A DNA stretch of 64,000 nt from Tsukamurella tyrosinosolvens (GTDB lineage Bacteria > Actinomycetota > Actinomycetes > Mycobacteriales > Mycobacteriaceae). A program made the position numbers and the translations under genes. Positions within the stretch are counted from its first letter, which is position 1, and each line of letters opens with the position of its first letter. Positions 21,742 to 45,254 of this stretch are shown piece by piece. The stretch lies in contig NZ_FNSA01000003.1 of the NCBI RefSeq assembly GCF_900104775.1, positions 3,968,001-4,032,000 of the forward strand. The letters run 5' to 3'. Below the pieces are notes generated by a model. The model made no database searches. It saw only the letters and a list, made by a program, of their open reading frames with translations, and had not been told where the DNA came from.

Positions 21742-21743
21742 TC

Positions 21744-22550: not shown

Positions 22551-22586
22551 GACGTCCTCCTTCTATGGGCAGTGCGGTTCGGAATC

Positions 22587-22605
22587 GACTCTATTGGTTA
22601 GAGTC
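22587..22605. promoter_or_regulatory. Inverted repeat in the birA-accD5 intergenic region
   Basis: GACTCTA-TTGGT-TAGAGTC has perfect 7-bp arms. It covers the presumed accD5 -10 element (TAGAGT, 22599-22604) and ends 6 bp before the ATG. This is the right place for a repressor operator controlling accD5 and possibly birA. It does not resemble a known biotin-repressor site. Confidence 0.45.
22599..22604 (+). promoter_or_regulatory. -10 element of accD5 (leaderless)
   Basis: TAGAGT is followed by 7 nt and ATG 22612. Confidence 0.5.
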
Positions 22606-22611
22606 GGGTCT

Positions 22612-24264
22612 ATGACGAGTGCCTCCACCACCGACGGCGCCTCCGGCGGCAACACCGCTGACGCCGAGCCCAGCATCCACACCACGGCCGGCAAGCTGGC
22701 CGCCTTCCGCAAGAAGGACGCCGAGGCGCTGGCCCCGATGGGCCAGGGCGCCATCGACAAGGTGCACGAGAAGGGTCGGCTCACGGCCCGCGAGCGCGTG
22801 CTCGCGCTGCTGGACGAGGGCTCGTTCGTGGAGCTGGACAAGCTGGCGCAGCACCGTTCGACGAACTTCGGCATGGCGGCGCGGCGTCCCGTCGGCGACG
22901 GCGTGGTGGCCGGTTACGGCACCATCGACGGCCGCGAGGTGTGCGTCTTCAGCCAGGACTCGTCGGTCTTCGGTGGCTCGCTCGGCGAGGTCTACGGCGA
23001 GAAGATCGTCAAGGTCATGGACCTGGCCACCAAGACGGGCCGTCCGCTGGTCGGCATCATCGACGGTGCCGGCGCCCGCATCCAGGAGGGCGTGGTCTCG
23101 CTCGCCCTGTACTCGCAGATCTTCTTCCGCAACACGCAGGCCTCGGGCGTCATCCCGCAGATCTCCGTGGTGATGGGCGCGGCCGCCGGCGGCCACGTCT
23201 ACTCCCCCGCGCTGACGGACTTCGTGGTGATGGTGGACCACGAGAGCCAGATGTTCATCACCGGCCCGGACGTCATCAAGTCCGTGACCGGCGAGGAGGT
23301 CACCAAGGAGGAGCTGGGCGGCGCCCAGACCCACATGACCAAGTCGGGCACCGCGCACTACGTCGCATCGGGCGAGCAGGACGCGCTGGACTACGTCCGC
23401 GAGCTGCTCACCTACCTGCCCTCGAACAACCGCGCCGAGGCTCCGCGCTTCGTGCCGACCGACCCGCTCACGGGCTCGATCGAGGAGTCGGTGAACGACG
23501 AGGACCGCGAGCTGGACACGCTGATCCCGGATTCGCCGAACCAGCCGTACGACATGCACGAGGTCATCCGCCGCCTGCTCGACGACGACGAGTTCCTCGA
23601 GATCCAGCCGCAGCGCGCGATGAACATCATCGTGGGCTTCGGCCGCATCGACGGCCGCAGCGTCGGCATCGTCGCGAACCAGCCCACCCAGCTGGCCGGC
23701 TGCCTCGACATCGACGCCTCGGAGAAGGCCGCGCGGTTCGTGCGCTTCTGCGACGCCTTCAACATCCCCATCGTCACCCTGGTGGACGTGCCCGGCTTCC
23801 TGCCCGGCACCGGCCAGGAGTACGACGGCATCATCCGCCGCGGCGCGAAGCTGCTCTACGCCTACGGCGAGGCCACCGTCCCGAAGATCACCGTCGTCAC
23901 CCGCAAGGCCTACGGCGGTGCGTACTGCGTCATGGGCAGCAAGGACATGGGCGCCGACATCAACCTCGCGTGGCCCACCGCCCAGTTCGCCGTGATGGGC
24001 GCGGGCGGCGCCGTCGGCTTCGTCTACCGCAAGGAGCTGGCGGAGGCGGCCGAGAAGGGCGAGGACGTCGAGGCCCTGCGCCTGAAGCTGCAGGAGGAGT
24101 ACGAGGACACCCTGGTCAACCCGTACGTGGCGGCCGAGCGCGGCTACGTCGACGCGGTGATCCCGCCCTCGCACACCCGCGGCCAGATCGTGACGGCCCT
24201 GAACATGCTCGAGCGCAAGGTCGTCGCCACCCTGCCCAAGAAGCACGGGAACATCCCGCTGTGA
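22612..24264 (+). CDS. accD5: Acyl-CoA carboxylase beta subunit (carboxyltransferase) AccD5
   Basis: A 550-residue carboxyltransferase of the propionyl/acetyl-CoA type. It has the N-terminal crotonase-like half ([13 protein letters not shown] oxyanion segment, [14 protein letters not shown]) and a matching C-terminal half ([51 protein letters not shown]). With AccA3 and AccE it forms the acyl-CoA carboxylase that makes methylmalonyl-CoA and malonyl-CoA for lipid synthesis. The ATG at 22612 is preferred: a TAGAGT -10 lies 7 nt upstream. It is coupled to accE by a 4-bp overlap. Confidence 0.95.
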
Positions 24265-24533
24265 GCGCCGAGCAGAAGCCGGTCGAGGCCAGCGCGGCCG
24301 ACGTCGAGAAGCTCAAGGCGGCCATCCGGTTCGAGCGGGGCAACCCGTCGGACGCGGACGTCGCCGCCGTCGTCGCGGTGCTCGCCGCGGCGACCGGCTC
24401 GACGCCGCAGTCCGGCCCGGAGGGCCCGAAGTCGCTGTGGGGCGACGTCCGCGACCGGATGCGCCCGCAGTACTTCAACGGCCCCAACGCCTTCACCAGC
24501 CAGACGCCGGTCTTCTGGACCAAGGGGTCCTGA
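24261..24533 (+). CDS. accE5: Acyl-CoA carboxylase epsilon subunit AccE5
   Basis: A 90-residue protein starting at the GTG that overlaps the accD5 stop. The basic/hydrophobic first half ([20 protein letters not shown], then VVAVLAAAT) and the C-terminal segment [10 protein letters not shown] ... FNGPNAF are characteristic of the small epsilon subunits that bind AccD5 in actinobacteria and raise carboxylase activity. M. tuberculosis has the same order accD5-accE5-maf. It is easily missed because longer frames overlap it. Confidence 0.9.
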
Positions 24534-24544
24534 TCCCCGCTCCC

Positions 24545-25183
24545 GTGCGCCTCGTGCTCGCGTCGGCCTCGCCGGCGCGGCTGTCGGTGCTGCGCGCCGC
24601 CGGCACCTCCCCGCTGGTCTCGGTCTCGCAGGTCGACGAGGACGCGATCCTCGCGGGCCTGGGCCCGGACGTCGCGCACGAGGACGCCGTCGCCGCGCTG
24701 GCGCGGGCCAAGGTGCAGGACGTGGTGGGCCGGATCGTCGCCGAGGAGCCGCTGCCCGGCCGCGCCGTGGTGATCGGCTGCGATTCGATGCTCTCCATCG
24801 ACGGCGAGCTCGTCGGCAAGCCGCACACGCCCGAGGTCGCGGCGGCGCGCTGGCGCGCGATGCGCGGCCGCACGGGCCGCCTCCTCACGGGGCACTGCGC
24901 GATCCTCCTCGACGACGGTGCCGTGGCCGGCGAGTCCGGCGGCACCCGGGCGACGACGCTGCGCTTCGGCGCACCGTCGGACGCGGAGATCGACGCCTAC
25001 GTCGCGACGGGCGAGCCCCTGCCGGTGGCCGGCGGGTTCACGCTCGACGGGCTCGGGGGTTGGTTCGTCGACGGCATCGAGGGTGACCCCAGCTCGGTCA
25101 TCGGCATCTCCCTGCCGCTGACCCGGCAGCTGTTGGGCGACCTGGGCGTCTCGCCCGTCGCGCTGTGGTCCGACCGAGCCTGA
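24545..25183 (+). CDS. maf: Maf-family nucleotide pyrophosphatase
   Basis: A 212-residue protein with the Maf signature LVLASASPARLSVLRAAG at the N terminus, IGCDSMLSIDGELVGKP (catalytic Asp) and the C-terminal GGFTLDGLGGWFVDGIEGDP. Maf proteins hydrolyse non-canonical or methylated nucleoside triphosphates and have been linked to cell-division arrest. The GTG at 24545 gives the family N terminus 11 bp after accE. In M. tuberculosis the next gene is sseA; here an 8-kb acyltransferase cluster intervenes. Confidence 0.9.
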   Translation: MRLVLASASPARLSVLRAAGTSPLVSVSQVDEDAILAGLGPDVAHEDAVAALARAKVQDVVGRIVAEEPLPGRAVVIGCDSMLSIDGELVGKPHTPEVAAARWRAMRGRTGRLLTGHCAILLDDGAVAGESGGTRATTLRFGAPSDAEIDAYVATGEPLPVAGGFTLDGLGGWFVDGIEGDPSSVIGISLPLTRQLLGDLGVSPVALWSDRA

Positions 25184-25448
25184 TCTTCACCATGACGGAC
25201 GTGGCGGACCTCACAGGGTTCGCGATCCGAATTCCGTAAGCATCGCGTTAACTCCGCGCAATCAGTACGTTTCCGCAGCTGGGAACCACAGTCGAAGGTT
25301 CAATCGCGTACGCCGTTCGAGCTGCAAGAACACCGAAGTAATCACCCCCTGCAAGTTCCCCCAACCCCGGTCAAGGGTCCGGCAGCGTGACGAGCGACAC
25401 CGCTCGTTCGTCTCGCGAAAGGAATAGACGTCGGCTTAGCGTCATGCC
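25184..25448. other. 265-bp AT-richer intergenic region at the left edge of the acyltransferase cluster
   Basis: This non-coding stretch is visibly lower in G+C than its surroundings (for example TTCCGTAAGCATCGCGTTAA). I see no gene, tRNA or intrinsic terminator in it. It ends with TAGCGT (25437-25442), 6 nt before the first acyltransferase ATG. It probably holds the control region of the cluster. Confidence 0.5.
25437..25442 (+). promoter_or_regulatory. -10 element of the acyltransferase operon (leaderless)
   Basis: TAGCGT is followed by 6 nt and ATG 25449; no Shine-Dalgarno sequence is seen. Confidence 0.4.
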
Positions 25449-26690
25449 ATGACCACGACGCTCCGCCCCCTCGCCTCGTCCGAGATCGGCTTCGTGGGCC
25501 CGCACCCCACCACGTGCGCCTTCGAGCTGACCGTGCGCGGCCCGCTGGACACCGACGCCCTCTCCGACGCCTTCAACGCGCTCCGCGCCGAGCACCCCGC
25601 GCTCGACGCCGCCGTCGCGCCCGCCGGCGACGGCTACGCCTTCGTCCCTCCCCGCGACCGCGCCACCCGCACCGACGGCACCGGCGCGCCCCTCGTCGAC
25701 CCCGCGGCCGCACTGGCCCGCCTGCACGTCACCTCGCTCGGCGACCGGCATCGCGTCGCGCTCGCCGTCAACCACGCCCTCGCCGACGGCACCCACCTGT
25801 ACGCGCTCCTGCGCCGGCTCTGGTCGCACTACACCGCGCTGGTGCGCACCGGCGCGACGGACGTCGCCGCGCCCCATCCCTTCCCCCGCTCGGCGCAGCG
25901 GATCCTCGAGGGCCTCGACGTCCCCAAGGTCAGCACCGGCCGCGCCCGGCTCGACGGTGCGCGGTGGTACGGCGCCGCCCCCGTCCTCGGTCCCCGGGCC
26001 GGCGACGCGGTGCTCCCCGAGACGACCTCCCTGCGCTTCTCGGCCGAGACCACCGCGGGGCTGCTCGCCGCCGCCGAGGGCATCGGCCTGAACGCCCTGC
26101 TCTCCGGGATCCTGCTCACCGCCGAACGAGCCGGTTTCGTCGACGAGGATCCGGCGGCACCCGTCCGGATCGGCGCGATGACCCTCGTCGACCTGCGGCG
26201 CCGGGTGCGCCCGATGCTCGATCCCACCGAGGTGACCAACTTCGTCGGCGCCTCGTACGCCGCCGCGGAGCTCACCGCCGGCTCCGACCCCGCCGCGGTG
26301 GGCGAGGACCTGGCCCGGACGGTCCGCCGGGACGTGCGCGGCGGCCGTGCCCTCACCGCCCTGGCGGTCGCCGCCCCGGCGGGCGAGGCGCCCGAGCCGC
26401 CCGTGGTGCTCAGCAACCTCGGCCCGCTCGACGTGGAGCTCCCCGACGGCCTGGTCGCCGAGGACCTGCGTCCCGTCCTGTCGATGGACTCCGCGGCCCT
26501 GCACGTGCCGGCCGGTGCGCGGCGCCCCGCACCGTCGGCCACGATCCACCAGGTCTCGACGTTCCGCGGCCGCCTCGGGATCGAGGCGATCACGCTGGGC
26601 GGCACCGCCTCCGAGGCGGCCCGCGCCGCCGTCGCCGACCGCATCGACTCGCTCGTCCACGCCGCCGCCCGCCGGGCACCCGCCGCCTGA
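25449..26690 (+). CDS. PapA5-like HXXXD acyltransferase, paralogue 1
   Basis: A 413-residue protein of the CoA-dependent acyltransferase/condensation superfamily, close in layout to phthiocerol dimycocerosyl transferase-like proteins. The catalytic HXXXD motif is NHALADGTH (H109, D113). The second half has VTNFVGASY, LSNLGPLD and FRGRLGIEA at positions shared with the genes at 26745 and 30130. Such enzymes esterify hydroxyl groups with fatty-acyl groups from CoA or carrier proteins. It opens a compact operon with a membrane protein and a glycosyltransferase. No signal peptide is present; the acyl donor and acceptor are unknown. Confidence 0.83.
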   Translation: MTTTLRPLASSEIGFVGPHPTTCAFELTVRGPLDTDALSDAFNALRAEHPALDAAVAPAGDGYAFVPPRDRATRTDGTGAPLVDPAAALARLHVTSLGDRHRVALAVNHALADGTHLYALLRRLWSHYTALVRTGATDVAAPHPFPRSAQRILEGLDVPKVSTGRARLDGARWYGAAPVLGPRAGDAVLPETTSLRFSAETTAGLLAAAEGIGLNALLSGILLTAERAGFVDEDPAAPVRIGAMTLVDLRRRVRPMLDPTEVTNFVGASYAAAELTAGSDPAAVGEDLARTVRRDVRGGRALTALAVAAPAGEAPEPPVVLSNLGPLDVELPDGLVAEDLRPVLSMDSAALHVPAGARRPAPSATIHQVSTFRGRLGIEAITLGGTASEAARAAVADRIDSLVHAAARRAPAA

Positions 26691-26744
26691 CGCCCGCCGT
26701 ACCGCCGCCTCGCCGCCGAACCGCCGTCCAGAACAGGAGCCGCC

Positions 26745-28031
26745 ATGCAGAATCACCGCGCACTCACCTTCTCCGAGGCGTCCTTCGTGCGCCCCACCTC
26801 GCGCGAGGTGATCGGCACGTCGTTCGAACTGCGGGGCGTCGTCGACGGCACCGCGCTCCGGTCGGCGTTCACCGCGCTGCTCGAGGAGTACCCGGTGCTC
26901 GCGGCGCGGATCGTGGACGTCAAGGGCCGCCCCCACTTCGCGCCGGGCGACGCGGCCGTGGCCGCCGCGATCGGCTTCCGCGACACCACGGCGCCGTGGA
27001 CCGGCTACGAGCAGACGCCGCCGTGGTTCGTCGGCTCCGAGCAGCTCGCGGCCCTGTCGCTCACCGGGATCGGCGAGCGGCACCGGCTCACCCTCTGGGC
27101 CAGCCACGCCGCGACGGACGGCTCGGGCATCGTGGCGATCGCGGCCCGGCTGTTCGAGCTGTACACCGCGCTGGCGAGCGGGGCGACGCCGATCATCCGG
27201 CGCGCCACCGACTTCCCGGCCGAGCCGCACCTGGTGATGGCGGCGCGCGGCCACCTCCCCGAGGAGCTGGACTACGAGGAGCGACTGGCGGGCACCGTGT
27301 GGCACGGCGCGGTCCCGGCGGAGTTCCCCGACGAGCCCGGGCCCGACGTCGACGACGCGCTGCGGGTCCGGTTCGGCACCGGCGAGACCACGGCGCTCGA
27401 CGCCGCCGCCCGCGCCCACGGCGTCTCGTCGCACGCCCTGGTCAGCGGCATCATCGCCCGCGCCGAGCTCGCCGAGTGCGCGGAGGACGCGGCGGTCGCG
27501 CTGCTCACCCCCGTCGACTTCCGCGGCCGGATCAGCCCGCCCATTCCCCTGCGCTCGGTGACGGCGCTGTGCGGCTTCTCCTACGTCGCGGTCGGCGACG
27601 CCCCGACCGCGGACATCGCCCGGACGGTGGCCGACCGGATCCGCGCCGACGTGCGCGACGGGACCGTGCTGCGGACCGCCGTGAGCCCGATGCCGGATCC
27701 GCGGACCCGCCGCCACGGCCCGCCCGTCCTCATCAGCAACCTCGGCGAGGTACCGGCGCCGGTCGCGCCCGCCGGGCTCGAGGTCCTCGACTTCCACGCG
27801 CAGATCGTCCGCAGCGCGGGCGGGATCCGCGAGTACGCCGCGGGCCACACGGGCCCCGGCCTCCCGGCCGCACCCATCGGGACCTCGTACCTGGTCTCCA
27901 CCTTCGGCGGGCGCCTCTCGGTCGAGCTGCGCGCCCTGCCCGGCACGCTCGACGGTGCCGTCCGCGCCCGCCTCCTGGACCGGATCGAGGACGGGGTGCA
28001 CGCGCTGCTCGAGATCGGCACCGCCGCATGA
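26745..28031 (+). CDS. PapA5-like HXXXD acyltransferase, paralogue 2
   Basis: A 428-residue paralogue of the preceding protein, 54 bp downstream with an AGGAG ribosome-binding site. The active-site motif is SHAATDGSG (H121, D125). The later signatures TPVDFRGRI, ISNLGEVPAP and FGGRLSVELR align with paralogues 1 and 3. It probably transfers an acyl group to a sugar or lipid hydroxyl. The threonine in the HAATD motif differs from the Ala in the other paralogues but leaves H and D intact. The stop codon overlaps the start of the membrane protein gene (ATGA). Confidence 0.83.
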   Translation: MQNHRALTFSEASFVRPTSREVIGTSFELRGVVDGTALRSAFTALLEEYPVLAARIVDVKGRPHFAPGDAAVAAAIGFRDTTAPWTGYEQTPPWFVGSEQLAALSLTGIGERHRLTLWASHAATDGSGIVAIAARLFELYTALASGATPIIRRATDFPAEPHLVMAARGHLPEELDYEERLAGTVWHGAVPAEFPDEPGPDVDDALRVRFGTGETTALDAAARAHGVSSHALVSGIIARAELAECAEDAAVALLTPVDFRGRISPPIPLRSVTALCGFSYVAVGDAPTADIARTVADRIRADVRDGTVLRTAVSPMPDPRTRRHGPPVLISNLGEVPAPVAPAGLEVLDFHAQIVRSAGGIREYAAGHTGPGLPAAPIGTSYLVSTFGGRLSVELRALPGTLDGAVRARLLDRIEDGVHALLEIGTAA

Positions 28032-28744
28032 CCGTCCCCCTCGCCGACACCGAGTCGCCGCCGGCCCCGCCGGTGGCGCTGCTCGTCGACGTCGGCCTGC
28101 AACTGGGCGTGTACTTCGCGCTGCGCTATCTGGTCGGCGCGGGGCAGCTCCTCGCCCTCGTCGCCGGCACCGCGCTGGTGGCGGTGCGCATCCTGGCGCG
28201 TTCGCTCGTGCGCCGCGCGACCGACCCGCTCGAGCTGTTCACCCTCACCCTGCTCGCCTGCTCCATCACCGCCGCCGCGATCTCCGGCAGCCCCCGCGTG
28301 ATCCTGCTGGTGGAGACCGCGATCGGCGCGCTCATGGCCGTCGCGATCGCCGCCGGCCTGGTCCTGCGACGCCGGGCCGTCGCGACGCTCATGATGCGGT
28401 TGACCGTCCGCGGCGACGCCGGACGCGCCCAGCAGTGGAACCGCCGCGTCCGCACCGAACGGCCCTGCGTCCGGGCGATCGGTGCCGTCGACCCGCTCTG
28501 GCTCGTGGCGGTCGTCCTCAGCACCACCGCCTCGGTCACGGCGGCGCTGAGCCTGCCGATCGACTACGCGGTCGTCGCCTGTCAGGTGATCCCGCTGCTG
28601 GTCGCCGTCCCGGTGCTGCCGCTCACGCTGCTGCTCCTGCGCCCCGTCCGGGCCGCGCTCGCCGGCGCCGCTCCGGAGGGAGCCGTCCCGGCCCCCGTCG
28701 CCCCCCGAACCGATCTCCACCCGACCGTCGAAAGGACGAACTGA
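28028..28744 (+). CDS. Polytopic membrane protein in the acyltransferase/glycosyltransferase operon
   Basis: A 238-residue protein starting with the ATG that overlaps the upstream stop. Hydrophobic segments at about residues 15-34, 38-57, 70-88, 92-115 and 155-205 indicate roughly six membrane helices. The pattern (VDVGLQLGVYFALRYLVGAG and IDYAVVACQVIPLLVAVPVL) recalls VC0807/septation-type small membrane proteins, but the match is weak. Its place inside the operon, one base before the glycosyltransferase start, suggests a role in moving or anchoring the lipid product or intermediate. The function is unassigned. Confidence 0.75.
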   Translation: MTVPLADTESPPAPPVALLVDVGLQLGVYFALRYLVGAGQLLALVAGTALVAVRILARSLVRRATDPLELFTLTLLACSITAAAISGSPRVILLVETAIGALMAVAIAAGLVLRRRAVATLMMRLTVRGDAGRAQQWNRRVRTERPCVRAIGAVDPLWLVAVVLSTTASVTAALSLPIDYAVVACQVIPLLVAVPVLPLTLLLLRPVRAALAGAAPEGAVPAPVAPRTDLHPTVERTN

Positions 28745-28745
28745 C

Positions 28746-30128
28746 ATGAAGGTCTGCATCCTCGCCATGGGGAGCCGCGGCGACGTCCAGCCGACGATCG
28801 CGATCGGGCTCGCGCTGCGCGCCCGCGGGCACGACGTGACCATCGCCGCGATGGGCGACCCGCTGGTGCGGCTCATCCGGTCGGCGGGCCTGGACGCCCA
28901 CCGGCTCAACGACTTCGTGCCGGACTACGACGACGACTACCGGGACGTGATCCACCGTCCGGTCGAGCGGATGCGGGCCTACGGGCGCTGGCTGGTACGC
29001 AACATCGCGACCATCTCCCGCGAGACCGAGACCGTGTGCCGCGATGCCGACGTGGTGCTGACCCATTCGGACGCCGTCGATTTCGCCCTGCCGATCACGC
29101 GGCGCAGCGGCGCGACGATCATCAGCTACCGGTTCTTCCCCGGCACCACCAACAGCGTCTACCCCATGACCCAGTACACCCCCGCGGGCCTGACCAGCGA
29201 CGTGCTGTCCCGGTCGCCGCGCGTGGTCAAGCGCGCGACGTGGGCCCTCGGCGACTCCTTCACGTGGACCCACGTGCGGGCCGCGGTGAACTTCCACCGG
29301 ATGTCGGTGGGCGAGGCGCCGTACCGGTCGCGGCGCGCCAAGAACCGCGATGCCAACGAGATCGTCGACCTGCAGCTCTACGATCCCGCGCTCACCCCGG
29401 ACCTGGTTCCCGAGTTCAGCCGGACGCGGCCGATGCTCGGCTTCCTCGAGGTCCCGGCCGACGCCTGGCTGCGCCAGGGCGAGCAGAAGCGCACCGACGC
29501 CGATCTCCTGGCCTGGCTCACGGACGGCGACGCCCCGATCTACTGGGGCTTCGGCAGCATGCGGATCGCGGACCCGGACGGCATGGCGCGCACCTTCGCC
29601 CGGGTCTGCGCCGAGCGCGGGCGCCGCGGCCTCATCGTCGCCGGCTGGAGCGATCTGGTCGGCGCCGACCTGGGCGACCACGTCCGCGTCGTCGACGAGG
29701 TGGTGCACGCGGAGGTCCTGCCGCACTGCGCCGCCGCCGTCCACCACGGCGGCGCCGGCACCACCGCCGCGTCGCTGCGGGCCGGGCTGCCCACGCTGAT
29801 CTGCCCGGTGCTCGCGGACCAGCCCTTCTGGGGCGCGCGGGTCACCGACCTCGGCGTCGGCGCCTGCCTGCCGATGCGCAACGTCACCGCGGAGCGCCTG
29901 CACGCGGCTTTCGACCTGCTGCTCGATCCGGCCACCCGCCGTCGCGCACAGCGGATCTCGTCGCTCATCGACCTCGGCGACATCCCCGCGCGCCGTGCCG
30001 CGACGATCATCGAGTCGATCGCGGAGGACGACGGCGTGGACGTGCGGACCGTTCCGGCGGTGACCGCGCCCGACACCGTCGACTTCGACGCCGCCGATGT
30101 GGTCTCCCTCGCCGGGCTGGAGGTGTGA
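28746..30128 (+). CDS. GT1-family glycosyltransferase (sterol/GPL glycosyltransferase-like)
   Basis: A 460-residue GT-B fold enzyme. The N terminus ILAMGSRGDVQPTIAIGLAL is the signature shared with sterol 3-beta-glucosyltransferases, macrolide glycosyltransferases and the mycobacterial glycopeptidolipid Gtf/Rv1524-type enzymes. The sugar-nucleotide site is HHGGAGTTAASLRAGLP ... CPVLADQPFWG, with the preceding VDEVVHAEVLPHCAA segment. It likely adds a hexose or deoxyhexose to a lipid or glycolipid acceptor. It lies between acyltransferase genes with gaps of 1 bp each side, so glycosylation and acylation are encoded in one transcript. Confidence 0.88.
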   Translation: MKVCILAMGSRGDVQPTIAIGLALRARGHDVTIAAMGDPLVRLIRSAGLDAHRLNDFVPDYDDDYRDVIHRPVERMRAYGRWLVRNIATISRETETVCRDADVVLTHSDAVDFALPITRRSGATIISYRFFPGTTNSVYPMTQYTPAGLTSDVLSRSPRVVKRATWALGDSFTWTHVRAAVNFHRMSVGEAPYRSRRAKNRDANEIVDLQLYDPALTPDLVPEFSRTRPMLGFLEVPADAWLRQGEQKRTDADLLAWLTDGDAPIYWGFGSMRIADPDGMARTFARVCAERGRRGLIVAGWSDLVGADLGDHVRVVDEVVHAEVLPHCAAAVHHGGAGTTAASLRAGLPTLICPVLADQPFWGARVTDLGVGACLPMRNVTAERLHAAFDLLLDPATRRRAQRISSLIDLGDIPARRAATIIESIAEDDGVDVRTVPAVTAPDTVDFDAADVVSLAGLEV

Positions 30129-30129
30129 G

Positions 30130-31377
30130 ATGTCCCGACGCGCCCTGACACCGCTCGAGATCCCGTACGTGCTCACGGGGACCACCTCCAGCGGCAGCTT
30201 CACCGTCCGCGGCCCGATCGACGCGGGCCGCCTGGCCCGCGCCTACGCGGCGCTGCGCCGGGAGTACCCCGTGCTCGCGGGCCGGATCGAGGCGCACGCC
30301 TTCGGTTTCGACCTGATCGCACCGGACGCGGCGCCCGAGAAGGACGCCGCACCGATCCAGGTAGACCTGCGGCCCTTCGCGCCCGGCGACGTGCGGCTCG
30401 GCGTGGACGCCGAGCGGGCGATCGCGGCGGTACAGCTCGTCTCCGACGGCGACCTGCACCGCGTCACGCTCGGGGTGAGTCACGCCGTCGCCGACGGCGC
30501 CCACGCGCTGTTCCTGAATCTGCGCCTGTGGGAGCTCTACTCGGGCGCCGAGCCCGCAGCTCCCTCCGGCCTCCCGGCCGCGCCGACGGACCTCGCGGAG
30601 CGGCTCGCGGCAGGCGACCCGCCGGACCCATCCGTGGTCGAGGTCCTCCCCACCGCGACGGTGCCGTCCCCCGCCGACGTCGACGCCGGCGACTTCGCGT
30701 TCGACCGGATCCGCCTCGACGCCGCCGCGACCGAGGCGCTGCGCCGCCGCGCCAAGGACGCGGGCCTGAGCGTGCACGGGCTCCTCGCGGGGATCATCGT
30801 CGCCGCCGAACGCGCGGAGATCGACCGCCCCGCCGAGGATCCGGTCCCCCTCGCCGTGTTCAGCCCCGTCGACCTCCGGGCCCGCGCCGAGCCGGCCGTC
30901 CCGGCCGCCGCGGTCACCAACTTCGCCGGCTCGTCGACGGTGCCCGTCGCCGTGCGCGGCGACACGACGCCCGAGGAGATCGGTCGCGCCGTCCTGGACG
31001 GCCTGCGCGCCGACCTCGCGAACGGCACCGTCGCGGCGGCCCTGGCCGGCGCCGCCCCGGTCACGGTGACCGGCGGGGTCCCCGTGCGGCTGAGCAACAT
31101 CGGCGCGATCCCGGCACCGTCGACCCCGGACGACGTGACCGTGCTGGACTTCCACACCAGCTCCGAGGTGGACATCGAGCGGGTCCGCGCCCTGGTGCGG
31201 CAGGCACCGCCCGAGGCGCTCGCCCCGCTCGTCGGCCTGCACCATCACGCGCTCACCTTCGACGGCCGACTGTCGATCGAGTTGCGGCACGCGCCGGGCA
31301 CCCTCGCGCCCGACGCCGCCCGGCGCATCCGGGACCGGATCGAGGCCGGTCTCGTCGGCGCGGGAGCCGCCGCATGA
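30130..31377 (+). CDS. PapA5-like HXXXD acyltransferase, paralogue 3
   Basis: A 415-residue paralogue starting at the ATG 1 bp after the glycosyltransferase stop. The catalytic motif is SHAVADGAH (H118, D122). It shares LTPLEIPYV at the N terminus, SPVDLRARAE, VTNFAGSS, LSNIGAIPAP and FDGRLSIELR with paralogues 1 and 2. It probably acylates a distinct position of the same product. The stop overlaps the ATG of the next acyltransferase (ATGA), which implies tight stoichiometric expression. Confidence 0.83.
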   Translation: MSRRALTPLEIPYVLTGTTSSGSFTVRGPIDAGRLARAYAALRREYPVLAGRIEAHAFGFDLIAPDAAPEKDAAPIQVDLRPFAPGDVRLGVDAERAIAAVQLVSDGDLHRVTLGVSHAVADGAHALFLNLRLWELYSGAEPAAPSGLPAAPTDLAERLAAGDPPDPSVVEVLPTATVPSPADVDAGDFAFDRIRLDAAATEALRRRAKDAGLSVHGLLAGIIVAAERAEIDRPAEDPVPLAVFSPVDLRARAEPAVPAAAVTNFAGSSTVPVAVRGDTTPEEIGRAVLDGLRADLANGTVAAALAGAAPVTVTGGVPVRLSNIGAIPAPSTPDDVTVLDFHTSSEVDIERVRALVRQAPPEALAPLVGLHHHALTFDGRLSIELRHAPGTLAPDAARRIRDRIEAGLVGAGAAA

Positions 31378-32648
31378 CGGCCGACCTGCTGGCGTTCGTC
31401 GATCAGGGCGCGGCCGCGGGCACCCGTGCGACCGGCCGCAATTCACTCATCCAGGTGACCTGGATCTACGACGACGGCGTCGACCTCGCCGGGCTCGAGC
31501 GGTTCCGCACCGCGCTCACCGGCGGACTGCTGGGCCGCCGGATCGCCCACTCCCCGCTGCCCTTCGGCCGGGACCGCTGGGTGGCGACCACCGCGGCGCC
31601 GCGGGTCGCCGTCGAGGCCGTCCCGCGCCCGCGCGAGGCGATCGACGGGTGGCTCGACGAACGCGCCGCCGCGCCCATCGACCCCTGGTCGGGGCCGGGC
31701 TGGCACCTGGGGGTGCTGCCGCTGACCGAGGGCGGATCCGCCGTGACCCTGGTGGTCTCGCACGTGCTCGCCGACGGCGTGGGCACCGCGACCGCCGTCG
31801 CGGAGGCCGCGCTGGGCGCACCCCGCGACCTGCCGTACCCGCGCGAGGCCGCGCCCCCGCTCCGGGCCGCCCGTCGCGACGCGGCCCTGGCGGCGCGGGA
31901 GCTGCCCGCCGCCGCGCGGGCCGCGGCGACCGCCGCCCGTCTGGCGCGAGAACGCCTCGATCACGACGGTCCCGCACCCGCGCACCCCGTCGGCACCGAC
32001 CGCTGGGCGGTCGTGCACCTCGACCGCGCGGCCCTCGCCGCGCGCGCCGCCGCGTCGGGCGGCACCGAGTCGACCCTGCTGTTCCGGGCCACCGCGCGGA
32101 TCGCCGCCGGACTCGGCTGGGTCCGTCCCGACGGGCAGGCCGTCCTCGGCCTGTCCGTGAACCGGCGCGAGGACGGCGACTTGCGCGGCAACGCGATCGT
32201 CGACGCGGAGCTCCTCGTCGACCCGGCGGCGGGTCCCGAGGGCGTGGTCGCCCTGCGCGCGGATGTCAAGGGCGTGCTGGGGGCGTTGCCGGACGCCGGG
32301 CAGTACGACGCCTTCGGCCCCCTCCTCACCCTGCTACCGCGCCGCACGCTGGCCTCACTCATCGACGCGCCGCCCGATCCGGCGCACCCGGTCACCACCT
32401 GCGCCGGCGTCGGCGCCCTGCCGGCACCGGTCCGCGCACCCGACGGCACCCCGGCGGACCGGACCTGGTTCCGCCTGGCGTGGTCGGCGCTGCCCGGGCG
32501 GGTCGCCCCGCCGCGACCGCCGTACCTGTACGTCGGGTGGACGGGCACGGAGACCGAGACCTCGCTGTTCGTCGCGAGCAACCTCGCGGCCGCCGCCGAC
32601 CTGCACGGGGTCGTCGAGCGGTCGATTCCCGACTACGCACACCACTGA
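31374..32648 (+). CDS. Divergent HXXXD acyltransferase (WS/DGAT- or condensation-domain-like)
   Basis: A 424-residue protein with the motif [10 protein letters not shown] (H130, D134) and a second-half segment LGLSVNRRE ... [10 protein letters not shown] recalling wax ester synthase/DGAT-type enzymes. It lacks the LSNIG and GRLSIEL signatures of the other three, so it is a separate subfamily. The active-site histidine is preceded by Ser rather than a second His. It closes the operon: a 9-bp-arm hairpin follows at 32665-32698. Substrates are unknown; a final acylation or transesterification is one possibility. Confidence 0.78.
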
Positions 32649-32664
32649 GTGCAGGAACACGCCG

Positions 32665-32698
32665 CCGCCCGGGGTCGCCGCGGCGCGGCCGGGCGGCC
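32665..32698 (+). terminator. Hairpin at the end of the acyltransferase operon
   Basis: GCCGCCCGG (32665-32673) and CCGGGCGGC (32690-32698) form perfect 9-bp arms; the 16-nt loop contains a further GCCGCGGC palindrome. No U-run follows, as usual for actinobacterial terminators. It precedes the sseA promoter. Confidence 0.5.
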
Positions 32699-32705
32699 TG
32701 GGGGC

Positions 32706-32711
32706 TAGGCT
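32706..32711 (+). promoter_or_regulatory. -10 element of sseA-sufE (leaderless)
   Basis: TAGGCT is followed by 7 nt and the GTG at 32719. It gives sseA its own promoter, separate from the upstream cluster. Confidence 0.5.
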
Positions 32712-32718
32712 GGCGGAC

Positions 32719-33612
32719 GTGGCTATCGAGACCGATCCGAGCGCGGAACTGCAGGACTACGCACACCCCGAGCGCCTCGTCACCGCGGACTGGCTGAGCG
32801 GGCACCTGGGGGTGCCCGGGCTCAAGGTGATCGAGTCCGACGAGGACGTGCTCCTCTACGACATCGGGCACATCCCGACCGCGCAGAAGGTGGACTGGCA
32901 CCTGCACCTGAACGACCCGGTGACGCGCGACTACATCACCGGCGAGCAGTTCGCGGAACTCATGCGGGCCAAGGGCATCAGCCGCGACGACACCGTCGTC
33001 ATCTACGGCGACAAGTCCAACTGGTGGGCCGCGTACGCGCTGTGGGTGTTCACCCTCTTCGGGCACCCGGACGTGCGCCTACTCGACGGTGGCCGCGACA
33101 AGTGGATCAGCGACGCCCGCGACGTCTCGCTGGAGCAGCCGGAGTACCCGCGCAGCGACTACCCCGTCGTCGAGCGCGACGACACGGTCATCCGCGCCTT
33201 CGCCGATCAGGTGCGCGCCGACATCGGCACGCGCGCCCTCGTCGACGTGCGGTCGCCGCAGGAGTACACCGGCGAGCGCACCCACATGCCCGACTACCCG
33301 GAGGAGGGCGCCCTGCGCGGCGGCCACATCCCCACCGCGGTGTCGATCCCGTGGGCGAAGGCGGCCCGGCAGGACGGCCGGTTCCTCCCTCACGCCGACC
33401 TCACCGAGGTCTACGGCGGCCTCGATCCGCAGTCGCCGGTGACGGCCTACTGCCGCATCGGCGAGCGCTCGAGCCACACGTGGTTCGTGCTCACCCACCT
33501 CCTCGGCTTCACGGACGTCAAGAACTACGACGGCTCGTGGACCGAGTGGGGCAACACCGTGCGGGCCCCCATCGTGCGCGGCGAGGAGCCCGGCGCCGCG
33601 CCCGGCGCATGA
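32719..33612 (+). CDS. sseA: Thiosulfate/3-mercaptopyruvate sulfurtransferase (rhodanese) SseA
   Basis: A 297-residue two-domain rhodanese. The inactive N-terminal domain ends with LLDGGRDKW; the C-terminal domain has [13 protein letters not shown] and the active loop [15 protein letters not shown] with C245 as persulfide carrier. It transfers sulfane sulfur. The GTG at 32719 is set by the -10 box 7 nt upstream. The stop codon overlaps the sufE-like ATG. In M. tuberculosis sseA directly follows maf; the operon inserted before it is specific to this genome or its relatives. Confidence 0.92.
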
Positions 33613-34025
33613 GCGCCCTGCCCGCGCCCCTGGCGGAGATCGTCGACGACTTCGCCGGGGTCGGCGAGCAGGACCGGCTCGAACTGCTCCTGGAGTTCTC
33701 GCGGGAGCTTCCCGAGCTGCCCGAGCACCTGACCGCGGCGGCGATGGAGCCCGTCCCGGAATGCCAGTCGCCGCTGTTCCTCGACGTCGACGCCTCGAAT
33801 CCCCAGGCGGTCCGGCTGTACTTCAGCGCCCCGCCCGAGGCGCCCACCACCCGCGGCTTCGCGTCGATCCTGGCGCAGGGCCTCGACGGGCAGCCGGCCG
33901 CGGCGATCGTCGCCGTGCCCGACGACTTCCACCACGCCCTCGGCCTCGACGCCGTGGTCAGCCCGCTGCGCCTGCGCGGCATGTCGGCGATGCTCGCCCG
34001 CATCAAGCGCCGGCTCGCCGGGTAG
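33609..34025 (+). CDS. sufE: SufE-like cysteine desulfurase-associated protein
   Basis: A 138-residue SufE/CsdE-family protein. It contains the catalytic cysteine C52 in [10 protein letters not shown], the DPQAVRL-like segment ([20 protein letters not shown], then GFASIL) and the C-terminal [16 protein letters not shown]. SufE accepts persulfide sulfur from a cysteine desulfurase and passes it to Fe-S assembly. It is translationally coupled to sseA (ATGA overlap), consistent with the sulfur-trafficking pair Rv3283-Rv3284. Confidence 0.9.
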
Positions 34026-34049
34026 CCCGGTCCTTCGAGCGAGCCCGCC

Positions 34050-35510
34050 GTGCAATTCACCGAACTGGACGCGTACCCGCTGCGCCCGGGTGAACTGCGC
34101 AACTGGATCCCCACCACGGGTCCGGCCGCGCGCTGGCGCGACGACCCGCGCGCCACCTCGCACGTGCACGAGGCGCACCTGCGGGGCGCGCAGTCGGTGC
34201 TGCAGCGCCGGCACATCGACGGTGGCCGCGAGTCGTGGCTGGGCCTGGGCATCGAGTTCGACGAGCCGCTCTCCATCCCCGGGATGCGCACGGCGCTGCG
34301 CGCGTGGATCGACCGGCACGAGGTGCTGCGCACCCACGTCTTCCTCGAGGACGACCGGCCGCGCCGCCGGAGCGCGCAGACCGCCACCGTCGACCTGCGG
34401 GTCAAGGCGATCGGCACCTACCGGTCCACCGGCCCCCTCGCCGAACAGCTGCTGGGCGAGTTCGACCGGTCGACGGCCCCGCTGACCTGGCCGGCCTACA
34501 TGTTCTCGACCGTGGCGCGGGAGGACTCGTTCACCCTGTTCTTCGCCGCGGATCACTCCCTGCTCGACGGCTACTCCCTCATCCTCAGCCCGTACGAGCT
34601 GCGCGAGTTCTACCGCGAGGCCGTGCACGGCGAGCAGCCGCGGCTCCTCCCCACCGGCAGCTACGTCAACTACTCGGACACCGACCGGCAATCGGCGGAC
34701 CGGGCCGGCGCGACGCACCCGGCGGCGCTGATGTGGGACGAGTACCTCAGCGAGACCGGCTTCAAACCCGACCCCTTCCCCATGCCGCTGCTGCCGCTCA
34801 GCGCGAAGGTGCTCGCGGACGAGACGCGGGCCGCCCTGAGCCGCGATCCGGACGGGGTGCCCCGGCTGCCGCAGGGGGCGCTGAACTTCCACCTGCTCGA
34901 CGACGACCGGTCCAACAACTTCACCCGCGTGTGCTCCGAGTCGGGCGCCTCGCTGGTGACGGGCGTGCTCGCATGCATGGCGAAGATCAACACCGACCTC
35001 GGCTTCGGACCGGTCTTCCGGTGCGCCGTCACCCGCCACACGCGCGACGCCGAGCAGTGGATCGCGGCGCTCGGCTGGTTCGTCGGCATCGCGCCCTTCC
35101 GGCTCGACACCACCGGCACCCGGACCTTCGGCGAGCTGGCCCAGCGGGCGCAATCCGCATGGAAGCACTCGAAGGCCGGCAGCACCCTGCCCTACCTGCG
35201 CATCGGCGAGGTCCTCGCCGACGAGCCCGGTCGCTCCCAGGCGCCGCCGCCCCGGTTCGTCGTCTCCTTCATGGACACGCGCTCGGCCCCGGGGTCGGAC
35301 GTCAACGACGCCGGCGGGGCCGGGGCGCTGCGCTCGCGGGACTACTCGATCGACGACGTCTACCTCTGGATGCTGCGCACCCCCTCCGGATTGCACGTGG
35401 CGGCGCGCTTCCCCGGCTTCGACACGGCACGCCGGAGTATCACTCTGTACCTCGGCGCGCTACGTTCGTTGTTGACCGAAATAGGCGATGCGACGGTTAC
35501 TCGTGGGTAA
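34050..35510 (+). CDS. PapA1-4-like condensation-domain acyltransferase
   Basis: A 486-residue protein resembling PapA1/PapA2/PapA3 of sulfolipid and acyltrehalose pathways in overall layout: N-terminal LRPGELRNWIP, WLGLGIEFDEPLS, DRHEVLRTHVF and the active-site DHSLLDGYS (H169, D173), with the late FVVSFMDTR segment. PapA enzymes acylate trehalose or related sugars. It lies 24 bp after sufE with no promoter visible, so it may be read through from sseA. It is longer than, and distinct from, the PapA5-like paralogues upstream. The acceptor is unknown; an acyltrehalose-like glycolipid is a reasonable guess. Confidence 0.83.
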   Translation: MQFTELDAYPLRPGELRNWIPTTGPAARWRDDPRATSHVHEAHLRGAQSVLQRRHIDGGRESWLGLGIEFDEPLSIPGMRTALRAWIDRHEVLRTHVFLEDDRPRRRSAQTATVDLRVKAIGTYRSTGPLAEQLLGEFDRSTAPLTWPAYMFSTVAREDSFTLFFAADHSLLDGYSLILSPYELREFYREAVHGEQPRLLPTGSYVNYSDTDRQSADRAGATHPAALMWDEYLSETGFKPDPFPMPLLPLSAKVLADETRAALSRDPDGVPRLPQGALNFHLLDDDRSNNFTRVCSESGASLVTGVLACMAKINTDLGFGPVFRCAVTRHTRDAEQWIAALGWFVGIAPFRLDTTGTRTFGELAQRAQSAWKHSKAGSTLPYLRIGEVLADEPGRSQAPPPRFVVSFMDTRSAPGSDVNDAGGAGALRSRDYSIDDVYLWMLRTPSGLHVAARFPGFDTARRSITLYLGALRSLLTEIGDATVTRG

Positions 35511-35596
35511 CCGAAACCGCGAGGGGACTGTCGGCTCCGCCACAAGTGAGTAGGCATACACTCGTCAGGAGTTGCGCCCGGACGGGACATGTAAGG

Positions 35597-35618
35597 GCGG
35601 CGCGCCGCTGCGCGCCGC
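35597..35618 (+). other. GC hairpin in the accA3 leader
   Basis: GCGGCGCGC (35597-35605) and GCGCGCCGC (35610-35618) form perfect 9-bp arms with a 4-nt CGCT loop, 20 bp upstream of the accA3 GTG. It could act as a terminator for upstream transcripts or as a 5' mRNA structure. The upstream stretch 35511-35596 carries a TACACT -10-like sequence. Confidence 0.45.
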
Positions 35619-35638
35619 AACGGAACGAGGAGACTTGA

Positions 35639-37447
35639 GTGGCAGCCCACGCTGACAAGAAGATCGAGAAGGTACTCATCGCCAACCGCGGTGAGATCGC
35701 CGTCCGCGTCATCCGCGCCGCCCGGGACGCCGGCCTGACCAGCGTCGCCGTGTACGCCGAGCCCGACGCCGACGCCAAGTTCGTGCGCCTCGCCGACGAG
35801 GCGTTCGCCCTCGGCGGCCAGACCTCGGCCGAGTCCTACCTCGTCTTCGACAAGATCCTCGACGCCGCCGCCAAGTCCGGCGCCGACGCGATCCACCCCG
35901 GCTACGGCTTCCTCTCGGAGAACGCCGACTTCGCGCAGGCCGTCATCGACGCGGGCCTGACCTGGATCGGCCCGTCGCCGGCCTCGATCCGCGACCTGGG
36001 CGACAAGGTCACCGCGCGGCACATCGCCGAGCGCGCCGAGGCCCCGATGGCGCCCGGCACCAAGGACCCGGTCAAGGACGCCGACGAGGTCGTCGCCTTC
36101 GCGCAGGAGTACGGCGTGCCCGTCGCCATCAAGGCGGCGTTCGGCGGCGGTGGCCGCGGCATGAAGGTCGCGTACACCATCGAGGAGATCCCCGAGCTGT
36201 TCGAGTCGGCGACCCGCGAGGCCGTCGCGGCCTTCGGTCGCGGCGAGTGCTTCGTCGAGCGCTACCTCGACAAGGCCCGCCACGTCGAGGCGCAGGTCAT
36301 CGCCGACCAGCACGGCAACGTCGTGGTCGCCGGCACGCGCGACTGCTCGCTGCAGCGCCGCTTCCAGAAGCTGGTCGAGGAGGCGCCCGCGCCGTTCCTC
36401 ACCGAGGCGCAGCGCACCTCCATCCACGAGTCGGCCAAGCGCATCTGCCGTGAGGCGGGCTACTACGGCGCCGGCACCGTCGAGTTCCTCGTCGCCGCCG
36501 ACGGCCTCGTCAGCTTCCTCGAGGTCAACACCCGCCTGCAGGTCGAGCACCCGGTCACCGAGGAGACCGCGGGCATCGACCTCGTGCGCCAGCAGTTCCG
36601 CATCGCCGAGGGCAAGGAGCTGACGATCACGGAGGATCCCACTCCCCGCGGTCACAGCTTCGAGTTCCGCATCAACGGCGAGGACGCCGGCCGCGGCTTC
36701 CTGCCGGCCCCCGGCCCGATCAGCGTGTACCGCGAGCCCACCGGCCCCGGCGTGCGCGTCGACTCCGGCGTGGACCAGGGCGACGTCATCGGCGGCCAGT
36801 TCGACTCGATGCTCGCCAAGCTCATCGTGACCGGCGCGACCCGCCAGGAGGCGCTGGAGCGCTCGCGGCGCGCGCTGGCCGAGTTCGAGGTCGAGGGCCT
36901 CGCGACGGTCATCCCGTTCCACCGCCACATCGTCTCCAACCCGGCGTTCGTGGGCGACGAGAACGGTTTCGAGGTCTACACCAAGTGGATCGAGACCGAC
37001 TGGGAGAACCCGATCGAGCCGTACACCGGTGGCCAGGCCATCGAGGAGGACGACTCGCTGCCCCGCCAGAACGTGGTCGTGGTCGTCGACGGCCGCCGCG
37101 TCGAGGTCTCGCTGCCCGGCGAGCTCTCGCTGGGCGGTGGCGGCGCGGCCGGCGGCGCCGGCGTGATCCGCCGCAAGCCGAAGGCGCGCACCCGCGACCG
37201 CGGCGCCGGCGTGGCCGCCACGGGCGATTCCGTGACCGCGCCCATGCAGGGCACCGTCGTCAAGGTGGCCGTCGAGGACGGCCAGCAGGTCAGCGCCGGC
37301 GACCTCGTCGTGGTGCTCGAGGCCATGAAGATGGAGAACCCGGTCGCGGCGCACAAGGACGGCATCGTGACCGGCCTGGCCGTCGAGCCCGGCACCGCCG
37401 TCACGCAGGGCACCGTCCTGCTCGAGATCAAGTCCGACGAGGCCTGA
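35639..37447 (+). CDS. accA3: Acyl-CoA carboxylase alpha subunit (biotin carboxylase + biotin carrier) AccA3
   Basis: A 602-residue fusion. The biotin carboxylase ATP-grasp part (about 1-455) shows [31 protein letters not shown], the glycine-rich [32 protein letters not shown] and [16 protein letters not shown]. The C-terminal biotinyl domain has EAMKMENP with the biotinylated K564. It is the shared alpha subunit for AccD partners, making malonyl- and methylmalonyl-CoA. It has a GAGGAG ribosome-binding site. BirA and AccD5/AccE in this window supply its modification and partner. Confidence 0.96.
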
Positions 37448-37451
37448 TTCC

Positions 37452-37679
37452 TTGGACCCGATCGGCCTGAACGTCGGGGCGTGGTACCTCACGGAACTGC
37501 GCCCCGACGCCTGGCTGGCCGATGAGGCCTACGCCTGGGCCGTCCGCGTGAACACCACCGGCGACTCGATCGGCGAGGTCACCCTCCTCCCCTCGGGCGA
37601 GGTCACCGTCGACGGTGCCGACAGCGAGGGCCTGCGCACCGCCCGCGCCGCCGTGGAACGATTCGGCGCGTCGCTCTAG
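37452..37679 (+). CDS. Small acidic hypothetical protein
   Basis: A 75-residue frame starting with TTG 4 bp after the accA3 stop. It has good actinobacterial codon bias and ends before the next gene. The composition is mixed (WYLTELRPDAWLADEAYAWA, then a DGADSEGLRTARAAVERFG helix). No family is recognised. The close spacing to accA3 suggests cotranscription. A GACGAGG sequence upstream may be its ribosome-binding site. Confidence 0.6.
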   Translation: MDPIGLNVGAWYLTELRPDAWLADEAYAWAVRVNTTGDSIGEVTLLPSGEVTVDGADSEGLRTARAAVERFGASL

Positions 37680-37722
37680 CCAAATCCCCGTGCCGGGCCG
37701 CCGGACGGGCGATGATCGAGAC

Positions 37723-38127
37723 ATGGCGAGAAAGCCGGAGCCCCCGAAGGCCCCACCCAGCATCAGCGAATCGGTCAACGACCTGGTCGACTCCGTGCGG
37801 TCCGCCGCCGGCAAGGCGATGGACAACACCGGCCGCACGGTGACCAGCGTCAGCAAGCTCAGCACCATCCCACCCGACACCATCGAGCTGATCGCCGAGC
37901 TGCCCAAGGTGATGCTCGCGATGGCCGACATGATCGAGCGCGCCAACAACGTCATCGACCGGGTCGAGCGGCTCACCGCCGTCGCCGATCCGGCCCTCAA
38001 CACGCTCGACGCCGTGTTGCCTCCCCTCGTCGACGTCACCAACAAACTCAGCGACGTGCAGCGCGGCGTCAACAAGCTGCCGGGCGTCAGTCACCTCCGC
38101 AAGGCCACCGGCCTCAGCAACGAGTGA
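37723..38127 (+). CDS. Hypothetical helical protein
   Basis: A 134-residue protein with no signal peptide or membrane helix. Long amphipathic helices (ESVNDLVDSVRSAAGKAMDN; MADMIERANNVIDRVERLTA; VDVTNKLSDVQRGVNKLPG) suggest a coiled-coil or phasin/apolipoprotein-like protein. A GATGAT -10-like element ends 6 nt before the ATG. It is convergent with the XRE-cupin regulator, 9 bp apart. I do not recognise the family. Confidence 0.75.
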   Translation: MARKPEPPKAPPSISESVNDLVDSVRSAAGKAMDNTGRTVTSVSKLSTIPPDTIELIAELPKVMLAMADMIERANNVIDRVERLTAVADPALNTLDAVLPPLVDVTNKLSDVQRGVNKLPGVSHLRKATGLSNE

Positions 38128-38136
38128 CCTGGAGGC

Positions 38137-41245: not shown

Positions 41246-41268
41246 CCCGCCGGTCGGGCCGGTCGCGT

Positions 41269-41288: not shown

Positions 41289-41358
41289 CGGGACCGGCGA
41301 CCGTACGGTTTCGCCCACAAGCCCTCCCACCCACTCCTTTCCGCGCCCACAGTGTGCC

Positions 41359-41383: not shown

Positions 41384-41409
41384 CGGACCGCAGACGCAGG
41401 AGAGACGAC

Positions 41410-45248: not shown

Positions 45249-45254
45249 CGGCGC

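What the first reader, a model, noticed from the sequence alone, without database searches (positions are those of the whole stretch)
25449..35510. Acyltransferase/glycosyltransferase cluster inserted into a conserved core block
In M. tuberculosis maf is followed directly by sseA, sufE-like and accA3. Here six lipid or glycan genes (four HXXXD acyltransferases, a membrane protein, a GT1 glycosyltransferase) sit between maf and sseA, and a PapA1-4-like acyltransferase sits between sufE and accA3. Overlapping stops and starts show one operon. No polyketide synthase, fadD or mmpL gene is present, so it differs from the PDIM, sulfolipid, acyltrehalose and trehalose polyphleate loci. Predicted product: a glycolipid carrying up to five acyl groups. 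From memory, Tsukamurella strains make acylated trehalose-type oligosaccharide lipids, which could be related.
Basis: partly seen in the sequence, partly recalled or inferred. Interest (0 to 1): 0.75.

Follow-up and report, generated by a model that had tools for sequence, protein, structure and literature searches.

The report
Swappable trehalose glycolipid gene cassette
A block of five fatty-acid-attaching enzymes, a sugar-attaching enzyme and a membrane protein sits beside core metabolic genes of Tsukamurella tyrosinosolvens, and comparison with relatives suggests it builds that species' long-known soap-like trehalose oligosaccharide lipids, whose genes I could not find described.

Summary
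Between maf and sseA lie AT1, AT2, a membrane protein, a GT1 glycosyltransferase, AT3 and AT4; a PapA2-type acyltransferase lies between sufE and accA3. All five acyltransferases keep HXXXD. The window matches T. tyrosinosolvens NCTC 13231 exactly over 17,200 bases, a species reported to make acylated trehalose tri- and tetrasaccharides. The six genes are contiguous in 11 of 16 Tsukamurella genomes; PapA is in place in 16 of 16. Two genomes carry another acyltransferase cassette in the gap, two are empty, one is cut by a contig end. In other genera the same spot holds an analogous, largely non-orthologous cassette (GT1 plus three PapA-type genes): 11 of 47 regions and 18 of 25 Rhodococcus loci (the sets overlap). 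R. fascians NBRC 12155, a reported trisaccharide-lipid producer, has it; T. spumae DSM 44113, listed only for trehalose diesters, has none; T. pseudospumae does not fit neatly. Best reading: a socket for swappable trehalose-glycolipid assembly genes, here making the species' oligosaccharide lipids. The product is inferred; one operon and five acyl groups are not shown. New variant of a known kind.

The parts
24545..25183 (+). maf (core flank)
   Evidence: TIGR00172; start as in RefSeq
25184..25448 (+). non-coding leader before AT1, GC 0.589, conserved in Tsukamurella (probable promoter/regulatory region of the cassette)
   Evidence: no second full copy in own genome
25449..26690 (+). AT1, PapA5-type acyltransferase (HXXXD H109)
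   Evidence: PapA_C 2.5e-43; motif
26745..28031 (+). AT2, PapA5-type acyltransferase (HXXXD H121)
   Evidence: PapA_C 1e-49; motif
28028..28744 (+). multi-pass membrane protein of the VC0807 family
   Evidence: NF041646 92.6 bits, cut-off 65; alignment (hydrophobic stretches seen by eye, no topology program run)
28746..30128 (+). GT1 family glycosyltransferase
   Evidence: Pfam; PDB GtfA/GtfB/sterol glucosyltransferase relatives
30130..31377 (+). AT3, PapA5-type acyltransferase (HXXXD H118)
   Evidence: PapA_C 6.2e-58; motif; nearly restricted to Tsukamurella
31374..32648 (+). AT4, HXXXDG acyltransferase, probably a remote WS/DGAT relative
   Evidence: motif; no Pfam; relatives in Mycobacterium-like genomes, one of which hits WS_DGAT_cat
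32719..33612 (+). sseA, sulfurtransferase (core flank)
   Evidence: Rhodanese; 16 of 16 genus genomes
33609..34025 (+). sufE-like (core flank)
   Evidence: SufE 3.4e-29
34050..35510 (+). PapA2-type (condensation-domain) acyltransferase, HXXXD H169
   Evidence: Condensation 6.9e-19; PapA2 structure 6aef E 8.4e-28; 16 of 16 genus genomes
35639..37447 (+). accA3, acyl-CoA carboxylase alpha (core flank)

Best explanation
The block assembles acylated trehalose-based oligosaccharide lipids, probably the tri- (and as core of the tetra-) saccharide biosurfactants reported for T. tyrosinosolvens. Inferred steps: the PapA2-type enzyme acylates trehalose from acyl-CoA; the GT1 enzyme adds a glucose to (acyl)trehalose; AT1-AT4 add medium-chain acyl groups to the two acylated sugars; the VC0807-family membrane protein anchors the enzymes at, or passes the lipid through, the plasma membrane. 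Chains would be ordinary fatty acyl-CoA, as no PKS or fadD is present in the block. More generally the maf/sseA gap plus the sufE/accA3 gap is a 'socket' in which different acyltransferase/GT cassettes are exchanged between lineages while PapA stays. Shown: gene content, conservation, purifying selection, positional equivalence, alternative and empty states. Inferred: substrates, order of steps, product.
For: PapA's only strong solved relative is PapA2 (E 8.4e-28, next 5.8e-6). Window = T. tyrosinosolvens, reported to make trehalose diesters and tri/tetrasaccharide esters, the trisaccharides with two C8-10 acyls on each of two sugars. R. fascians NBRC 12155, listed for a succinic trisaccharide tetraester, has GT + PapA x3 + sseA + sufE + PapA + accA3 (L066). 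Rhodococcus sp. I2R is reported, from mass spectra, to make succinic trisaccharide tetraesters; a genome of its species (KRD197, ANI >98%) is L070, with a GT plus four papA genes, three of which can be read at exactly the lengths given for I2R (1461, 1431, 1488) and with nearly the same spacing; the start of the fourth was not resolved. The related BS-15 and 'isolate Q' lipids carry a beta-linked third glucose (figure legend), which suits an inverting GT1 (established knowledge). The third sugar is on C2 in T. tyrosinosolvens but C4 in Rhodococcus, as expected if the two GTs are not orthologues. T. spumae DSM 44113, listed only for diesters, has no cassette but keeps PapA (L052). Upstream cassettes of the other type occurred in 14 of 29 regions with PapA between sufE and accA3 and 0 of 18 without (related, non-randomly chosen genomes, so the Fisher p of 0.00025 is only indicative).
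Against: T. pseudospumae JCM 13375 has the intact block (L053), yet the species is listed only for trehalose diesters (strain DSM 44117), and trehalose lipids without a third sugar were isolated from IV19-045 (passages); other strains and media, but the fit is not clean. No oligosaccharide lipid was seen reported, in what I read, for the other block-bearing species. Strain DSM 44370, the chemotype strain, was not sequenced here. The Tsukamurella GT is not clearly grouped with the Rhodococcus cassette GTs (support 65; 32% identity), and AT1-AT3 have no hit among Rhodococcus pA1-pA4. No transporter was recognised in the block. The tetrasaccharide needs a further GT not found here. Only about four strains link genotype and chemistry.
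Confidence: 0.7

Rival explanations
1. The acyltransferases make only trehalose di- or polyesters, and the GT glucosylates some other acceptor (sterol-like, carotenoid or polyketide).
For: GT1 relatives in the PDB act on antibiotics and sterols; T. pseudospumae with the block is reported, in what I read, only for trehalose esters.
Against: T. spumae, listed for trehalose diesters, lacks the block and has no AT3 relative at 1e-10 and no GT at 1e-40 anywhere, so diesters do not need it; GT lies 1 nt from each neighbour; GT+acyltransferase pairing recurs at this spot in four other genera.
Confidence: 0.15
2. A PDIM- or phenolic-glycolipid-like pathway: PapA5-type AT1-AT3 esterify a long-chain diol, GT glycosylates it.
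For: AT1-AT3 are closest to PapA5, the dimycocerosyl transferase (AT3).
Against: No PKS, fadD or mmpL in the block; scores far below the PapA5 cut-off (157.5-179.5 against 396 bits); the partner present in all 16 genus genomes is PapA2-type.
Confidence: 0.08
3. The block serves an unrelated surface glycan or detoxifies a compound (GT1 relatives inactivate rifamycin and macrolides).
For: GT hits the Rgt rifamycin glycosyltransferase model, but at 122.6 bits against a cut-off of 800.
Against: Acyltransferases and a membrane protein conserved with it in 11 of 16 genomes have no obvious part in detoxification.
Confidence: 0.04

Closest known systems
Rhodococcus/Rhodococcoides cassette at the same locus (papA cluster of Rhodococcus sp. 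I2R, PMC8396431; R. fascians NBRC 12155)
   Same: same chromosomal place (sseA-sufE-papA-accA3), PapA in the same position (37%), a GT1, several HXXXD acyltransferases; reported producers of trehalose trisaccharide lipids
   Different: upstream acyltransferases are condensation-type pA1-pA3, not PapA5-type; GT 32% identical and not clearly orthologous; no hit to the VC0807 membrane protein by tblastn at 1e-5; maf sometimes moved
Mycobacterial acyltrehalose loci (sulfolipid, DAT/PAT, trehalose polyphleates, lipooligosaccharides)
   Same: PapA-type enzyme on trehalose, further acyltransferases (recalled)
   Different: those contain PKS, fadD and mmpL (recalled); none in this block
TlsA of Rhodococcus sp. 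SD-74 (succinoyl trehalose lipid)
   Same: PapA-related acyltransferase said to play a key role in acylating trehalose (as cited in PMC8396431)
   Different: only about 30% similar to the I2R papA genes, single gene; its sequence was not examined here
GPL/sulfolipid small membrane proteins Gap/Sap
   Same: small multi-pass protein in a glycolipid locus (recalled)
   Different: our protein is VC0807 family, no Pfam hit

Membership tests
PapA2-type trehalose acyltransferase (PapA 34050-35510) | condensation domain with HXXXD and PapA2 as nearest solved relative by sequence | tested here: met
PapA2-type trehalose acyltransferase (PapA 34050-35510) | acylates trehalose or a derivative | not testable with these tools
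   needs enzyme assay
PapA5 (AT1-AT3) | reaches curated PapA5 cut-off | tested here: not met
   157.5, 168.8, 179.5 bits against 396
PapA5 (AT1-AT3) | PapA_C domain and HXXXD | tested here: met
WS/DGAT (AT4) | WS_DGAT_cat Pfam match | tested here: not met
   no hit for AT4; relative L091:9741-11099 hits at 7.3e-8; HXXXDG present
GT1 glycosyltransferase | N- and C-terminal domain matches of GT1-type enzymes | tested here: met
PKS-based acyltrehalose loci (SL-1, DAT/PAT, TPP, LOS) | PKS, fadD and mmpL in the locus | tested here: not met
   the genes of 25449-35510 are all assigned
Rhodococcus-type cassette (type B) | upstream condensation-type pA1-pA3 orthologues | tested here: not met
   no blastp hit of AT1-AT4 to pA1-pA4 at 1e-3
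Rhodococcus-type cassette (type B) | place next to sseA and PapA between sufE and accA3 | tested here: met
Rhodococcus-type cassette (type B) | GT orthologous | tested here: inconclusive
   support 65

The most novel reading that the evidence does not exclude
The maf/sseA/sufE/accA3 neighbourhood is a glycolipid-diversification socket across the family (31 genera in the search group): a resident PapA starts acylated trehalose, and largely non-orthologous GT/acyltransferase cassettes are exchanged, lost or replaced upstream of sseA, so that Tsukamurella and Rhodococcus arrived at trehalose trisaccharide lipids with different enzyme sets at one address.
Probability: 0.45. Interest if true: 0.75.

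Novelty: new variant of a known kind. Interest (0 to 1): 0.62.

Why it matters
Trehalose tri- and tetrasaccharide biosurfactants were reported in 1998 and 2014 (dates from the review PMC4365757), but I found no paper naming their glycosyltransferase or acyltransferase set (searches; open-access library only, listings plus passages of eight papers). A defined locus makes the pathway testable gene by gene, gives a genomic marker for producers, and offers enzymes for designed biosurfactants. It also shows glycolipid genes being swapped at one core address in relatives of mycobacteria.

Tried and rejected
Insertion by recent transfer was considered and thought unlikely: block GC is 0.73-0.78 against 0.69-0.72 in sseA, PapA, accA3 and accD, and a basal relative (BOG_194 contig, L039/L055) already has AT3 and AT4 beside sseA.

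Recent transfer of the alternative cassette between G303 and PLM1 was rejected: cassette identity is 74-87% per 500 nt against 82-95% in 18 of 21 flanking stretches.

A profile comparison of AT4 with AT1-AT3 gave probability 18 with E 0.0013 over 38 columns around the motif, and with PapA nothing; the PDB profile search gave no significant hit. PADLOC gave nothing for GT. The consensus promoter/terminator scan gave none. Six frames upstream of sseA in the g7 genome L112 hit no Pfam model; what lies there stays unknown. GT neighbours outside this locus (L041-L045, L095) showed no cassette genes by tblastn. G144 regions L090 and L136 showed PapA-type genes and one PapA5-type gene at separate places, not a type-A cassette.

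Rows dropped and limits: two of 49 regions were left out of the count of 47 because they are not sseA regions (L090, L095); L083-L089 were chosen because they had a PapA hit, and without them the count is 12 of 22 against 0 of 18. Among the 18 without PapA, three have an unexplained gap of more than 1.1 kb before accA3 (L103, L108, L122) and four no sufE hit. Of 25 Rhodococcus loci, two (L060, L061) are too short to judge, four have no cassette (L075, L076, L078, L079) and one (L081) has three PapA genes but no GT in the stretch held. In the order-wide searches only the best five or six candidates per genome were scored.
Full report
What is there. Third-codon-position GC and open frames and the RefSeq annotation of the identical T. 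tyrosinosolvens NCTC 13231 sequence give the same genes with the same starts from AT1 on. AT1, AT2 and AT3 are PapA5-type (PapA_C), GT is GT1, the fifth acyltransferase is condensation/PapA2-type. AT4 matches no family model but has HXXXDG; its relatives, 35-49% identical, occur in up to five scored copies in Mycobacterium-like genomes of genus g2. In the four g2 regions that I read, two to five AT4-like genes follow a PapA-type gene; Pfam found MmpL in L091 and L093, a PKS part and an AMP-binding enzyme in L093 and an AMP-binding enzyme in L092; frames of MmpL size in L092 and L094 were not scanned. One AT4 relative hits WS_DGAT_cat. That g2 is Mycobacterium is my inference, not a name from a call.

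Which organism. A piece of the window's assembly is 100% identical over 4290 bases to a T. tyrosinosolvens NCTC 13231 plasmid record (for the strain of its sister record), and 17,200 bases of the window (21001-38200) are 100.000% identical to NCTC 13231 record NZ_LR134451.1. That record is labelled a plasmid, which is odd for a stretch with accA3 and accD.

Distribution in the genus. sseA and PapA: 16 of 16 genomes. The six-gene block is intact in 11 of 16: the window, sp. M9C, G301, T. asaccharolytica, T. ocularis, T. conjunctivitidis, T. sputi, T. pseudospumae, sp. TY48, sp. 1534 and G238 = T. paurometabola type strain (chromosome length 4,379,918 bp in both). Names come from matching contig lengths. 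G307 (contig of a MAG titled Acidobacteriaceae) ends inside AT3 and has AT4 at 57%; further AT fragments lie on another contig. T. spumae DSM 44113 and sp. 8F have no gene recognised between maf and sseA, about 100 and 320 nt apart. G303 and sp. PLM1 hold another cassette there: a shortened AT2 relative without HXXXD, PapA-type pA1 and pA2, a probable SGNH hydrolase (named by eye), an MFS transporter, an HXXXD protein ATc and PapA-type pA3 (read in detail in G303; PLM1 by DNA identity and part of the genes). In a five-gene tree those two are not sisters, T. spumae pairs with T. pseudospumae (100) and sp. 8F with G307 (100), so loss and replacement happened more than once, or the alternative cassette moved; the tree includes genes of the locus itself and has several nodes at 34-75.

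Outside the genus. AT3 has a relative at E 1e-25 or better in one genome outside Tsukamurella among the 298 of the order searched, so this cassette looks genus-specific at that threshold. PapA at E 1e-70 or better: 11 of 298, in 5 of 76 genera. I then took sseA from 121 genomes of the family (found in 119) and read 47 non-Tsukamurella sseA regions from 26 genera. PapA sits between sufE and accA3 in 29 of 47. All 14 have the sufE/accA3 PapA; none of the 18 without it has such a cassette (genomes are related and not randomly drawn). In the named Rhodococcus loci 18 of 25 show GT plus three PapA-type genes.

Chemistry against genotype. From one review (section 8 and passages): T. tyrosinosolvens DSM 44370 makes trehalose diesters and tri/tetrasaccharide esters, the trisaccharides with two C8-C10 acyls on each of two sugars and the third sugar on C2; R. 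fascians NBRC 12155 is listed for a succinic trisaccharide tetraester, third sugar on C4; T. spumae DSM 44113 is listed for trehalose diesters only. The last two are exact-strain matches to genomes here (L066 with cassette, L052 without). A third trisaccharide producer, Rhodococcus sp. I2R (PMC8396431, passages and section 16; structures predicted from mass spectra), shares its species with KRD197 = L070, which has the GT; the four papA genes that paper lists fit the L070 layout (three lengths can be read identically). That paper named these papA genes as candidates; in what I read it did not describe the locus, a GT beside them or the sseA/sufE split. T. pseudospumae is the misfit: block present in JCM 13375, only trehalose esters seen reported from other strains. 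The original chemistry and gene papers (Vollbrecht 1998, Konishi 2014, Kugler 2014, Inaba 2013) were not read.

Mechanism. Shown: five acyltransferases with intact motif, a GT1, a VC0807 membrane protein, co-conservation, purifying selection, a conserved low-GC leader before AT1. Inferred: PapA starts acylation of trehalose; GT adds glucose; AT1-AT4 acylate with ordinary acyl-CoA; the membrane protein serves assembly or translocation. Four cassette acyltransferases and four acyl groups on the reported trisaccharide match in number, which may be coincidence. Positions cannot be assigned.

Relation to the Rhodococcus cassette. Same address and PapA (37%), but AT1-AT3 have no blastp hit to pA1-pA4, AT4 has one to the reverse-strand protein over 109 residues (39%), and the GT grouping is weak (65). 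In contrast pA1, pA2 and pA3 of the Tsukamurella alternative cassette match Rhodococcus pA1 (40%), pA3 (42%) and pA2 (34%) best. So one genus uses both kinds of cassette at one address. That is the most surprising part.

Verdict. Real, conserved, functionally coherent, probably the missing genes of the Tsukamurella oligosaccharide lipids; unproven in chemistry; new variant of a known kind.

Noticed in passing
25184-25448: Low-GC leader before AT1 conserved in nine Tsukamurella genomes with blocks such as GTAAGCAT.GCGTTAA and GGTCAAG; no second full copy in the genome; in T. pseudospumae about 700 nt sit between maf and this leader.
   Followed up: partly
L031 5178-6110; L038 about 5100-6100: A shortened AT2 relative with HXXXD lost is kept as an open frame in two non-sister species, perhaps a non-catalytic partner.
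   Followed up: partly
L089, L102, L129, L131, L132, L134: Cassettes with two GT1 genes instead of one (6 of the 11 GT cassettes); could go with longer sugar chains such as the pentasaccharide lipid of Nocardia corynebacteroides listed in PMC4365757 (speculative, genomes unnamed).
   Followed up: no
L091, L092, L093, L094: AT4-like genes in tandem beside a PapA-type gene in Mycobacterium-like genomes, with MmpL (L091, L093), a PKS part (L093) and AMP-binding enzymes (L092, L093): an acyl-lipid locus whose identity I did not establish.
   Followed up: partly
plasmid records H9-H15: PapA relatives of 27-31% identity on Sinorhizobium and Cupriavidus plasmids.
   Followed up: no
L055: Contig titled Acidobacteriaceae (BOG_194) is Tsukamurella-like in this locus.
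   Followed up: no
NZ_LR134451.1 and window 41000-49500: The NCTC 13231 record labelled plasmid 9 carries core genes and may be a chromosomal piece; downstream lie mdo, MoxR, VWA and mftM genes.
   Followed up: no
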